A DNA stretch of 64,000 nt from the NCBI GenBank assembly GCA_028293625.1, contig JAQGOL010000025.1:310001-374000 (forward strand), written 5' to 3'. This stretch comes from Chthoniobacteraceae bacterium. GTDB lineage: Bacteria > Verrucomicrobiota > Verrucomicrobiia > Chthoniobacterales > Chthoniobacteraceae. Below the pieces are notes generated by a model. It worked only from the letters and a program-made list of their open reading frames with translations, did not search any database and was not told the origin of the DNA. Position numbers and translations under genes: made by a program. Below, one piece after another: positions 29,427-32,161 of this stretch (position 1 is its first letter; each line of letters opens with the position of its first letter).

Positions 29427-30053
29427 TTACTCGTCGTCTTCGTCGTCGTCCTCGGGCTCGTCGGGGAGCGGCTCGAGTTCGTCGCCGGCAGTGGAAAATT
29501 TCCGTCTGCGTTTGGCTGCGGGAAGCGGGGCGAGGGTCATGGTGACATTTCTGCCCATGAGCTTCGGCTCGGTTTCCACATTGGCCATATTGACCAAGTC
29601 ACCTTTGACGCGGATCATGAGGCGCATGCCAAGTTCCTGATGCGCCATTTCACGGCCGCGGAACTGCAATTGGATGCGCACCTTGTTTCCCTTGTCGAGG
29701 AATTCCTCGGCGTGGCGCATCTTCGTCTCGTAATCGTGACCGTCAATATTGACGCGGAATTTGATCTCCTTGAGCTTGCTGCCCGAGTTTTTCTTTTCCT
29801 TGTCGTGCTTGGAAGTCTCGTACTTGAACTTGCCGTAATCGACGATGCGGCAAACGGGAGGCTGCGCGGTAGGGGCAACCTCGACGAGATCGAGGCCGAG
29901 ATTCTGTGCGTGCCGGATGGCATCGGACAGTTTCATGACCCCGAGCTGCTCACCTGTGGAGGCCACAATCACCCGCACCTCGCGTGCGCGGATTCGGCCG
30001 TTGACTCTGATTTGTTGGAGTTGGATAGCTGGCGTTCTGGTGGGGCAGGTCAC
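29427..30053 (-). CDS. infC: translation initiation factor IF-3
   Basis: The 208-residue IF-3 has the N-domain (VNGRIRAREVRVI, then DLVEVAP, PVCRIVDYGKFKYE) and the C-domain (KEIKFRVNI, FRGREMAHQELG). It is longer than E. coli IF-3 (180) because of a basic then acidic tail: RRRKF followed by an Asp/Glu-rich end (DDDEDDE). The start shown is GTG; IF-3 genes often use rare starts such as AUU for autoregulation, and an ATC codon nine codons later is an alternative. It has its own terminator, so rpmI and rplT do not follow it here as they do in most bacteria. Confidence 0.95.
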   Translation of the reverse strand: MTCPTRTPAIQLQQIRVNGRIRAREVRVIVASTGEQLGVMKLSDAIRHAQNLGLDLVEVAPTAQPPVCRIVDYGKFKYETSKHDKEKKNSGSKLKEIKFRVNIDGHDYETKMRHAEEFLDKGNKVRIQLQFRGREMAHQELGMRLMIRVKGDLVNMANVETEPKLMGRNVTMTLAPLPAAKRRRKFSTAGDELEPLPDEPEDDDEDDE

Positions 30054-30364
30054 CTTGGAGCTGAGGGGCCCGCCCGTTTACTTTTTTCAAGTCGCAATTT
30101 CGTGGCTGTCAAATCATTCAACAGCCGCGGCTCTTTCACCGACCGCGCTTGCAACTCCACGCAGGTCTGGCGCAATGCGTTTTGGCGCACATTGAACTAT
30201 GGGGTTTAGGAGAGAATTCAAAGCGCCGCAAGGGAATTTTCCAACACTTTGCCAGAACACTGATTCCAAAGGAGCCGCGCCCGTTGATGCGCGGCACGGA
30301 ATCGGCCGCTTTCTGGCTTGGTAAATGCGTTGCGTACCGCTCAATGGAGGTGTGAACTTTTCCA
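30054..30364. other. divergent intergenic region between infC and the 22-residue-repeat gene
   Basis: About 310 bases with no gene I can support. Short overlapping open frames on both strands have no family resemblance. The infC promoter and leader must be here, as must a promoter for the gene starting at 30365. I see no L20- or IF-3-type leader structure and no riboswitch. Confidence 0.4.
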
Positions 30365-31072
30365 ATGAGCGAAACCCTGCTTGAATTGCGCGAGGAAATC
30401 GCTGAGCTGCGCCGCAAGGTCGATCGTCTGACCGGTTTGATTGACCCCTCCTCCTCCGAAAATTCAGGGACCGCCACATCGCCCCAATCCGGCACCTTCA
30501 GCCTCCATTCCCCCGACGGCACGAGCCCGATCCGGATCCGCGCTGAAAATGAGAGCGCCGGCCTTTATTTCTACGACAAACAAAACGCTTGCCGTGGCAT
30601 GATTGAGATCACTGAAAAAGGAGTGCGTTTCTCTCTCCTAAGCCCGGAAGGGCATCCGATTGTTTCAATGAAAGGCATCGATGGCCATGGCCAGCTTTGC
30701 GTCGCCTCGCCCGATGGCATCGCACGCGCCGCGATCCGTTCCACCAAACATGGCGGCGTCGTCAAAGTGCTCAATGCCCAGGGCCGCCCGCTTGGGTTTC
30801 TTTTCGGGGCTGAAAGCGGCGGCGTCATTGAACTCAACAACCAGTCCCACCGCACCGGCGTCTCGCTCTTTGCCGAGGACGACGGCGGCATGCTGCGCCT
30901 CCACCAGGGCGGCGGCGAAGTCATGGCCTCGATTTCCGCCCACGACGACTCGGGCTTGCTCACGGTCTTCGGCACCCTGGGCGAACAAGCCGTCACACTT
31001 TGCGCGGGCGAACATGGCGGCCACATTCTTATTTGCGATGTCGATGGTGACGTGCGCACAGAACTTACGTAA
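30365..31072 (+). CDS. coiled-coil plus nine 22-residue repeats, predicted beta-solenoid
   Basis: The 235-residue protein has no signal peptide. Residues 1-27 form a heptad-like helix (LLELREEIAELRRKVDRL). From residue 39 to the end, nine units of 22 residues follow without interruption (39-60, 61-82, 83-104, 105-126, 127-148, 149-170, 171-192, 193-214, 215-235). Each has Gly at or near position 5, alternating hydrophobics, a Gly at position 14 in seven of nine units, and a second hydrophobic strand. This regularity points to a beta-solenoid or beta-prism. The helix could trimerise it. I know no family for it. It lies nine bases before an M42 peptidase gene and may be co-transcribed. Confidence 0.8.
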   Translation: MSETLLELREEIAELRRKVDRLTGLIDPSSSENSGTATSPQSGTFSLHSPDGTSPIRIRAENESAGLYFYDKQNACRGMIEITEKGVRFSLLSPEGHPIVSMKGIDGHGQLCVASPDGIARAAIRSTKHGGVVKVLNAQGRPLGFLFGAESGGVIELNNQSHRTGVSLFAEDDGGMLRLHQGGGEVMASISAHDDSGLLTVFGTLGEQAVTLCAGEHGGHILICDVDGDVRTELT

Positions 31073-31081
31073 AACCACCTT

Positions 31082-32161
31082 ATGGACGATCAGGCACGCA
31101 CTTTTCTCTTCGATCTTCTCAATACCCCAAGCCCCACCGGCTTTGAGATCGCCGGCCAGCGCAAATGGGCCGCTTACGCCAGGCAGTTCGCCGCCCGCGT
31201 TGAAAACGACGCCTATGGCACCGCCTGGGCGACCATTGATGGCCAGGGCGCCAATCCGCGGCGCATCATGATCGAAGCGCACGCCGATGAGATCGGTTAC
31301 ATCGTCAAACAGATCACCAAGGACGGCTTTTTACGCATCGATCGGATCGGCGGCTCCGACACGGCCACCGCGCGCGGGCGGCGCCTCGAGATTCTCGGCG
31401 ACAAAGGCCATGTGCGCGGCATCATCGGCAACACCGCCATTCATCTGCGCAAAGATAACAAGGACGAAAAAGCGCCCCAGATCCATGAGCTTTACGTCGA
31501 TATCGGCGCATCGAGCGCCAGCGAAGTTTATGAAGCCGGTATCCGCGTTGGGCATCCGGCTGTTTATTCCGATAAAGCCGAGGCATTTGGCCAGAACCGC
31601 ATCGTCAGCCGTGCCCTCGACAATCGGATTGGCGGATTCATCCTCACCCAGGTCCTCGCCAATCTCAGCAAACGCACCGAGCCGCTGAATTCCACCGTGT
31701 TCGCCGTCAACGCCGTGCAGGAAGAGATCGGCGGCAACGGTGCGAAAATGGTGGCGCACCGGCTCAAGCCCGACGTCTGCATCGTGCTCGACGTCACGCA
31801 TGCCACCGAGACTCCGGGGATTGAGGCCGAAAAACATGGCGAAGTGAAACTTGGCGGCGGGCCGAGCATCACGCATGGGACCTGCAACCATCCCGAAGTA
31901 ATCGCGCGGCTGATGCAAGTGGCCACGAAACTTGGCATCCCGCTTCAGCACGAGAGTTCCTCGCGTTATAGCGGCACCGATACCGACGTCATCTTCACCG
32001 TGGGCGATGGAATCCCAAGCGCGCTCATTTCCCTGCCGTTGCGGTATATGCATTCGGTCGTCGAGACGGTCGACCTTTCCGACGTGGAGAAAGTCATCGC
32101 GCTTCTGACCGGCTTCATCGAATCGGTGACCGATTCCGACGAGTTCAGCCTCAAGCTCTGA
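31082..32161 (+). CDS. M42-family metallopeptidase (glutamyl aminopeptidase/endoglucanase type)
   Basis: This 359-residue enzyme has dizinc M42 residues in order: His in EAHADEIGY, Asp in ALDNRIGG, the Glu pair in AVQEEIGGNGA, Asp in VLDVTHA and a final His in RYMHSVVE. M42 enzymes are cytosolic dodecameric aminopeptidases, a group earlier mis-annotated as endoglucanase M. It trails the repeat protein gene by nine bases on the same strand. Confidence 0.92.
   Translation: MDDQARTFLFDLLNTPSPTGFEIAGQRKWAAYARQFAARVENDAYGTAWATIDGQGANPRRIMIEAHADEIGYIVKQITKDGFLRIDRIGGSDTATARGRRLEILGDKGHVRGIIGNTAIHLRKDNKDEKAPQIHELYVDIGASSASEVYEAGIRVGHPAVYSDKAEAFGQNRIVSRALDNRIGGFILTQVLANLSKRTEPLNSTVFAVNAVQEEIGGNGAKMVAHRLKPDVCIVLDVTHATETPGIEAEKHGEVKLGGGPSITHGTCNHPEVIARLMQVATKLGIPLQHESSSRYSGTDTDVIFTVGDGIPSALISLPLRYMHSVVETVDLSDVEKVIALLTGFIESVTDSDEFSLKL

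What the first reader, a model, noticed from the sequence alone, without database searches (positions are those of the whole stretch)
30365..31072. Nine exact 22-residue repeats behind a coiled coil: an undescribed beta-solenoid
Seen directly: from residue 39 to 235 the protein splits into nine units of 22 residues (last one 21) with no insertions. Each has a Gly near position 5, a Gly at position 14 in seven of nine units, and two alternating-hydrophobic strands. A 27-residue amphipathic helix precedes them. Inference: a rigid beta-solenoid or trimeric beta-prism stalk, cytosolic as no signal peptide is present. The strict register is unusual for so short a protein, and I know no matching family (not bactofilin, pentapeptide or hexapeptide).
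Basis: partly seen in the sequence, partly recalled or inferred. Interest (0 to 1): 0.68.

Follow-up and report, generated by a model that had tools for sequence, protein, structure and literature searches.

The report
Coiled-coil protein with β-hairpin repeats
A bacterium of the Verrucomicrobia group encodes a small protein, probably inside the cell, in which a short coiled coil is followed by nine equal 22-residue units that are predicted to fold into one long flat sheet, a rod-like scaffold of a repeat family for which no catalogue entry was found.

Summary
In detail: ORF 30365-31072 (+) encodes 235 residues, a heptad helix and then nine in-register 22-residue units (lags 22, 44 and 66 each reached by 0 of 2000 shuffles). 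The gene is real: relatives evolve at dN/dS 0.02-0.07. The β-solenoid inference is not supported. Two AlphaFold2 monomer models (window protein; a 31%-identical relative) give two strands per unit, joined mostly by alternating 2- and 5-residue turns. Best structural matches are single-layer antiparallel sheets: engineered OspA (Z 14.4, 3.3 Å over 197 residues), then CPAP G-box and MORN1. One sheet face is hydrophobic and uncharged (0 of 44 positions), so it is probably buried against another copy held by the coiled coil; a trimeric prism is not excluded. No Pfam, NCBIfam or PHROGs family fits the window protein. Relatives include 463-497-residue, membrane-anchored and Nitrospirota plasmid versions. 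The gene is accessory: two congeners have infC and the M42 peptidase gene adjacent without it. Most likely role: a cytosolic rod or spacer scaffold. New variant of a known kind.

The parts
30365..31072 (+). ORF, 235 aa plus stop: coiled coil followed by nine 22-residue repeats
   Evidence: relatives; dN/dS 0.02-0.07 among six relatives
30368..30442 (+). N-terminal amphipathic heptad helix (residues 2-26)
   Evidence: a/d positions LIVI / MLLL; AlphaFold2 helix 2-23; one relative (L009, apparently the same contig as L024) has a 7-residue insertion here against the other six rows of the alignment, one heptad; the window alone lacks 3 more residues nearby
30443..30478 (+). Ser/Thr-rich linker (residues 27-38), predicted disordered
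   Evidence: residues 23-42 have pLDDT under 50
30479..31069 (+). nine tandem units of 22 residues (last 21), starting every 66 bases from 30479; predicted 18-strand antiparallel single-layer sheet
30346..30350 (+). GGAGG, possible ribosome-binding site 14 bases before the ATG
   Evidence: read directly; spacing is long, so weak
31082..32161 (+). M42 glutamyl aminopeptidase gene, starting 9 bases after the repeat gene's stop codon, probably co-transcribed (inference)
   Evidence: PF05343 E 2e-82; gap read
29427..30053 (-). infC (translation initiation factor IF-3), divergent neighbour
   Evidence: PF00707 and PF05198
30103..31077 (.). stretch holding the repeat gene that has no counterpart between infC and the M42 gene in congener G001
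   Evidence: blastn flank matches to G001 end at 30102 and resume at 31078; the infC-M42 gap is 298 bases in G001 and 273 in G002 against 1028 here

Best explanation
A cytosolic rod protein. Each 22-residue unit gives a beta-hairpin (typically 8-residue strand, 2-residue turn, 7-residue strand, 5-residue turn that often carries xxG). Nine units join edge to edge into one long antiparallel single-layer sheet of 18 strands. One face (unit positions 7, 9, 18, 20, 22) is hydrophobic and uncharged, the other (6, 8, 10, 17, 19, 21) is variable and more polar. The N-terminal coiled coil brings two or three copies together so that the hydrophobic faces cover each other and make a stiff rod whose length is set by the number of units. 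The variable outer face or the sheet edge then holds a partner, so the protein works as a spacer or scaffold. Shown by calculation: periodicity, selection on relatives, predicted hairpin sheet in two sequences, hydrophobic alternation, heptads. Inferred: which residues share a face, oligomer, burial of the face, scaffold role, partner.
For: Periodicity. AlphaFold2: block-mean pLDDT 82-94 from residue 51 on in the window protein; much the same strand pattern in a 31%-identical relative, with a deviation at its residues 108-125. Foldseek's top 18 rows for the window model are OspA structures or designs of that kind (E from 1.3e-7); VIA: 2fkj Z 14.4, 3.3 A over 197 residues, CPAP TCP/G-box Z about 12, MORN1 Z 11.8; similar with the second model. 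By sequence alone, two of three family profiles (A2, A4, which share no row) pick the engineered OspA chain 3eex as best PDB hit, E 3.2e-4 and 2.7e-4. Hydrophobic face: 0 of 44 charged in the window protein, 2% of 1364 positions over 22 proteins, against 24% and 20% on the other face. Heptads in all 13 coiled-coil-type proteins scanned. One relative carries a one-heptad insertion, and L020 (like L031 and L032) lacks 43 residues, one short of two units.
Against: AlphaFold2 can be confidently wrong on repeats (abstract of PMC11795689), although its bias there is towards beta-solenoids, the opposite of the result here. The structural aligner warns that Z under about 13 may mean only a common arrangement for repeats; that covers CPAP and MORN1, not 2fkj. 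A residue-covariation test of the strand register was inconclusive. A free single-layer sheet should not have one strongly hydrophobic face, so the monomer model cannot be the whole story. The third profile, A1, does not hit OspA; its best hit is a designed coiled coil. The heptad and repeat scans fit their own register and have weak or no controls. No partner, expression or phenotype is known, and neighbours are hardly shared within the short subfamily.
Confidence: 0.5

Rival explanations
1. Trimeric beta-prism or intertwined triple beta-helix fibre: a trimeric coiled coil templates three chains whose strands wrap round a hydrophobic core, as in phage tail-fibre and Bdellovibrio MAT stalks.
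For: The conserved hydrophobics alternate strictly in each strand. A distant relative, L043, has a weak hit to the MAT N-terminal domain (NF053851, E 0.0016, 18 bits against a cut-off of 60) and to a phage tail-fibre PHROG (E 1.1e-8 at residues 134-204, before its repeats) and carries irregular repeats of this general type. MAT fibres are intertwined trimeric beta-prisms (passages of PMC10769870).
Against: Two monomer models fold confidently as in-chain hairpins. The heptad core (mostly V, I or L at a; mostly L or M at d) fits a dimer better than a trimer by the a/d rule (recalled). The window protein has no visible signal or tip domain, and no phage record matches. L043's spacing is irregular (18-34) and its membership rests on 30 bits.
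Confidence: 0.25
2. Two-sheet beta-solenoid: each 22-residue unit is one coil of two 11-residue halves with hydrophobics inside and Gly at the turns.
For: The 11-residue sub-period (lag 11 z 4.0) and the hydrophobic alternation at 7, 9 and 18, 20 are what a two-sided solenoid would show.
Against: Both AlphaFold2 models have short hairpin turns and align along their length to antiparallel single-layer sheets, although AlphaFold2 leans towards solenoids on perfect repeats (PMC11795689 abstract).
Confidence: 0.12
3. Monomeric exposed single-layer sheet that binds a peptide along its edge or face, as CPAP's TCP domain binds STIL.
For: Fold matches to CPAP, including the STIL-peptide complex 4bxr. 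The CPAP domain is predominantly monomeric, with about 20 antiparallel strands, type I turns and PDG motifs (passages of PMC3776556); window units carry SPDG, SPEG, SPDG and NAQG turns.
Against: CPAP's sheet has both faces exposed and hydrated, whereas here one face is hydrophobic and uncharged, and a coiled coil is present. No partner is known.
Confidence: 0.1

Closest known systems
Engineered and native OspA single-layer beta-sheet (Borrelia outer surface protein A; peptide self-assembly mimics)
   Same: Row of antiparallel hairpins in one layer; best fold match (2fkj, Z 14.4) and best PDB sequence match of two of three family profiles (3eex).
   Different: No lipoprotein signal seen, no globular end caps in the model, nine near-regular units, a coiled coil in front; the only Pfam match listed at E up to 10 is a sub-cut-off BPL_C hit (E 0.032); 10% identity over the structural alignment to 2fkj.
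CPAP/SAS-4 TCP (G-box) domain
   Same: Single-layer sheet of consecutive hairpins with PDG turns; Z 10.4-12.6.
   Different: CPAP's sheet is hydrated on both faces; here one face is hydrophobic. Identity 2-8% in the rows; no Pfam match.
MORN repeats
   Same: 23-residue hairpin units in a row, dimers (passages of PMC7725318), found also in prokaryotes (abstract start); Z 11.8.
   Different: Consensus YxGEW...GxG absent; turns mostly 2 and 5 residues rather than 5 and 6.
RHS/YD repeats
   Same: Rhs and teneurin shells appear in the Foldseek lists; the YD motif resembles the D..G[RK] turn (recalled).
   Different: TM-scores only about 0.2; no RHS_repeat Pfam hit; no toxin domain.
MAT fibres of Bdellovibrio
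   Same: One distant relative (L043) joins a weakly MAT-like N-terminus to repeats of this general pattern.
   Different: MAT stalks are intertwined trimers; the window protein has no signal peptide or tip.

Membership tests
beta-solenoid | successive coils stacked by parallel beta pairing | tested here: not met
   Two AlphaFold2 monomer models show short hairpin turns and align to antiparallel single-layer sheets; a prediction, not a structure, and pairing was not read from coordinates.
Single-layer antiparallel beta-sheet architecture | one chain forms a row of hairpins in one layer | tested here: met
   Predicted in two sequences; 2fkj Z 14.4 and 14.0.
OspA family | Pfam model match; lipoprotein signal peptide | tested here: not met
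   No OspA-type Pfam hit listed at E up to 10; no hydrophobic N-terminus.
MORN repeat | YxGEW...GxG 23-residue consensus or Pfam match | tested here: not met
   No MORN hit; commonest residues give xE[DG]GGxLxLxDxDGKPRAxLx[AV].
CPAP TCP/G-box domain | Pfam match | tested here: not met
   No hit listed at E up to 10; similarity is of fold only.
RHS/YD repeat | Pfam RHS_repeat match | tested here: not met
   No hit.
RHS/YD repeat | closed shell of hairpins | not tested
   Shell closure was not examined.
Trimeric beta-prism / MAT fibre | three chains intertwined round a hydrophobic core | not testable with these tools
   No multimer prediction; monomer models and face analysis only.
Bactofilin, pentapeptide or hexapeptide repeat | Pfam match | tested here: not met
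   No such hit listed at E up to 10.
Coiled-coil protein | hydrophobic a/d heptads over at least three turns | tested here: met
   All 13 coiled-coil-type proteins scanned, best register, no shuffle control; residues 2-23 helical. Oligomer number not tested.

The most novel reading that the evidence does not exclude
An uncatalogued bacterial repeat superfamily (commonest residues xE[DG]GGxLxLxDxDGKPRAxLx[AV]) makes natural, soluble, length-coded single-layer beta-sheets with one sticky face, mated in pairs or triplets by a coiled coil in the cytosol or displayed behind a membrane anchor. It would be a natural counterpart of the OspA-based 'peptide self-assembly mimics', with unit number acting as a ruler.
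Probability: 0.35. Interest if true: 0.6.

Novelty: new variant of a known kind. Interest (0 to 1): 0.44.

Why it matters
The solved single-layer sheets that this model matches best are OspA and designs on it, or eukaryotic (CPAP, MORN1, junctophilin, radial-spoke proteins). A bacterial family that builds such sheets from about 9 to 19 units, in soluble and membrane-anchored forms, would give a natural test of how they avoid aggregation and would let other 'hypothetical proteins' be read as rods of predictable length. The MlaE/MlaD neighbourhood of some anchored relatives gives a first functional lead for that branch.

Tried and rejected
Phage origin: no match in phage records for the window protein or for relative L041, none confirmed in four viral-contig scans, no PHROG listed at E up to 10 for the window protein. 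Plasmid origin: no plasmid match for the window protein; L041 finds 3 records of Candidatus Manganitrophus. Defence system: no PADLOC model for the window protein and two paralogues at E up to 1. Conserved operon for the short subfamily: of ten genome contigs relatives on short contig pieces (3.6-12.7 kb), only L024 shares a neighbour with the window, a cupin gene that is not next to the repeat gene in the window. Residue covariation to decide parallel or antiparallel pairing: inconclusive on 161 two-unit rows from 25 proteins, one near-duplicate dropped and four proteins added. Promoter and terminator scan: 0 promoters, 2 terminator-like sites against 1.3 expected. Weak family hits in relatives, all below the curated cut-offs and not followed: Sep15_SelM (E 5.5e-5) and Astro_capsid_p2 (E 0.0012) for L037, VirB8 (E 0.0052) for L041, a tRNA-splicing endonuclease model (E 1.2e-6, 29 bits against 157) for L039. 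PDB single-sequence search found only a designed beta-trefoil at E 0.13, read as chance. Literature: searches returned no paper on this repeat that I could recognise from the listing and abstract starts; only 8-15 rows were listed for each and the library holds part of the literature. No solenoid title stood out among the VIA rows shown, which is not evidence of absence.

Full report
Observation. The open reading frame 30365-31072 (+) encodes 235 residues. Residues 39-235 fall into eight units of 22 and a last one of 21. On 2000 shuffles of that region, lags 22, 44 and 66 have z of 8.4, 8.6 and 7.4 with 0 of 2000 shuffles as high; the largest z over lags 5-69 in any shuffle was 4.8. An 11-residue sub-period is present too. 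The N-terminal segment reads as a clean heptad helix in its best register.

Is it a gene? Yes. Fifteen pairwise comparisons among six relatives from metagenome-assembled Verrucomicrobia (L025-L030) give dN/dS 0.02-0.07; some dS values are near or above 1, so those ratios are rough. Several relatives align over nearly the whole length (residues 1-234) at 27-32% identity; others cover only residues 1-175 or less.

Family. The own genome holds two long paralogues, 463 and 476 residues from the start codons I chose. Matches were found in 5 of 57 close relatives at E up to 1e-3, 15 of 213 genomes of the order at E up to 1e-5, and 11 and 12 of 387 sampled genomes of the phylum with two profiles at E up to 1e-6; all these counts include the own genome. 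A scan of one genome for each of 84,980 species with the short-subfamily alignment gave 10 loci, all titled Verrucomicrobia; that method reaches only fairly close relatives. Profile A4 has seven rows and none of the coiled-coil-type proteins: six from genomes of the same phylum and one Nitrospirota plasmid protein; six of the seven bear an N-terminal hydrophobic anchor. It finds the own-genome paralogue L002 at E 3.9e-10, so the two branches share the repeat. In the nine proteins that I grouped as the wider branch, seven (L038-L042, L044, L050) have a 19-residue Kyte-Doolittle mean of 1.8 or more near the N-terminus; L037 has 0.6 and L043 1.1. The plasmid protein of Candidatus Manganitrophus is annotated 'hypothetical protein' beside a CusA/CzcA efflux gene.

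Repeat consensus. A position matrix trained on 22 proteins (264 units in the last round) has as commonest residues xE[DG]GGxLxLxDxDGKPRAxLx[AV]. Unit spacing: 22 in 103 and 23 in 30 of 159 intervals in coiled-coil-type relatives, 22 in 48 and 23 in 23 of 84 in the wider branch, and 22 in all 7 intervals found in the window protein; the procedure penalises spacings other than 22, so these lean upwards. Every protein scored far above the best of 20 shuffles of itself (lowest 129, highest shuffle 17), but the matrix was trained on the same proteins. Unit number varies: L020, and likewise L031 and L032, lack 43 residues that L014 has before the last unit, one short of two units, and seven long forms have 17-19 units. 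L009 (apparently the same contig as L024) has a 7-residue insertion, one heptad, in the coiled coil.

Structure. AlphaFold2 with ten aligned sequences gives mean pLDDT 83 for the window protein, 82-94 per ten-residue block from residue 51 on, helix 2-23 and 18 strands, mostly with alternating 2- and 5-residue turns. A second job on the 31%-identical relative L024 gives much the same pattern with a deviation at residues 108-125, mean pLDDT 80.6. The closest solved structures are engineered OspA single-layer sheets, then CPAP TCP/G-box and MORN1, with Rhs-type shells further down the Foldseek lists. The aligner's own note says that for repeats Z under about 13 may mean only a common arrangement; 2fkj (14.4 and 14.0) stands above that, CPAP and MORN1 do not. 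Among viral models, 19 of the 50 rows shown are MORN-repeat proteins; the top row is an Ackermannviridae protein and many rows are unnamed. Two of three sequence profiles also name an engineered OspA chain as best PDB hit (not). Hence not a β-solenoid by prediction. Limits: monomer only, shallow alignment, no coordinates, and AlphaFold2's known unreliability on repeats (PMC11795689, abstract and outline read), although that bias runs towards solenoids.

Faces. Through a two-residue turn, positions 20 and 18 of one unit pair with 7 and 9 of the next, so they share a face, and by repeat symmetry all of them lie on one face (inference from the strand limits). These positions are hydrophobic: 73% VILMFWY and 0 of 44 charged in the window protein, 71% and 2% over 1364 positions in all 22 proteins; the other face has 31% and 24% in the window protein, and 29% and 20% over 1638 positions. 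A monomer with such a face would be sticky. The coiled coil offers the remedy: two or three copies with faces buried together. Mostly V, I or L at a and L or M at d fits a dimer (rule recalled, not tested).

Genome setting. The repeat gene lies between divergent infC and an M42 aminopeptidase gene that starts 9 bases after its stop codon. In congeners G001 and G002 the two genes are neighbours with 298 and 273 bases between them and no repeat gene; flank matches to G001 stop at 30102 and resume at 31078. In G003 the two genes lie on different contigs, so the site could not be judged. None of the 3 congeners (86, 96 and 96% complete) has a match to the window protein at E up to 1e-3, so the gene is accessory. 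GC (0.599) is near that of its neighbours (0.597 and 0.577) and GC3 (0.686) a little lower than theirs (0.739 and 0.737), so no clear sign of a foreign origin. One long paralogue (L003) begins one base after ubiD in the own genome, and its relative in G010 overlaps ubiD by four bases; the UbiD proteins are 82% identical over 495 residues and a UbiA-type gene lies upstream in both. Anchored relatives in G482, G502 and G565 sit in a shared cluster that in G565 holds MlaE and MlaD homologues. These are leads for other branches and do not fix the role of the window protein.

Verdict. A real, uncatalogued member of a wider bacterial hairpin-repeat superfamily, most likely a coiled-coil-mated rod or scaffold. 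The fold class is known; the family and its combination with a coiled coil are undescribed as far as searches show.

Noticed in passing
L052 6274-9301 (G000:C26) and L054 5764-8771 (G010:C17): A long coiled-coil repeat protein directly follows ubiD (UbiD 82% identical, repeat protein 30%), with a UbiA-type gene upstream: a possible conserved quinone-related operon.
   Followed up: partly
L066 4374-14664, with L062 and L064: Membrane-anchored repeat relatives lie in a gene cluster shared by three genomes; in L066 it holds two MlaE permeases, one MlaD protein above and one below the Pfam cut-off, a TPR-like protein below cut-off and two carbamoyltransferase genes.
   Followed up: partly
L043 751-2847 (-), genome G444: A 699-residue protein with weak MAT-fibre N-terminal and phage tail-fibre similarity and irregular repeats of this general pattern; possible surface fibre.
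   Followed up: partly
L050 3851-4645 (CP114563.1 plasmid, Nitrospirota): Repeat protein with a hydrophobic N-terminus, annotated 'hypothetical protein', next to a CusA/CzcA heavy-metal efflux gene.
   Followed up: partly
C-termini of L037, L040-L042, L044, L084, L088, L090: These eight relatives of the wider branch end at or within a few residues of a W-x-[AVT]-P motif, and 10 of 12 coiled-coil-type relatives end at or soon after [LMF]P that follows a last G-containing turn: a possible end cap of the sheet, absent in the window protein, which ends in ELT.
   Followed up: no
L033 536-997: A relative whose tblastn match spans query residues 1-234 while its open frame is only 154 aa; decayed gene or assembly error.
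   Followed up: no
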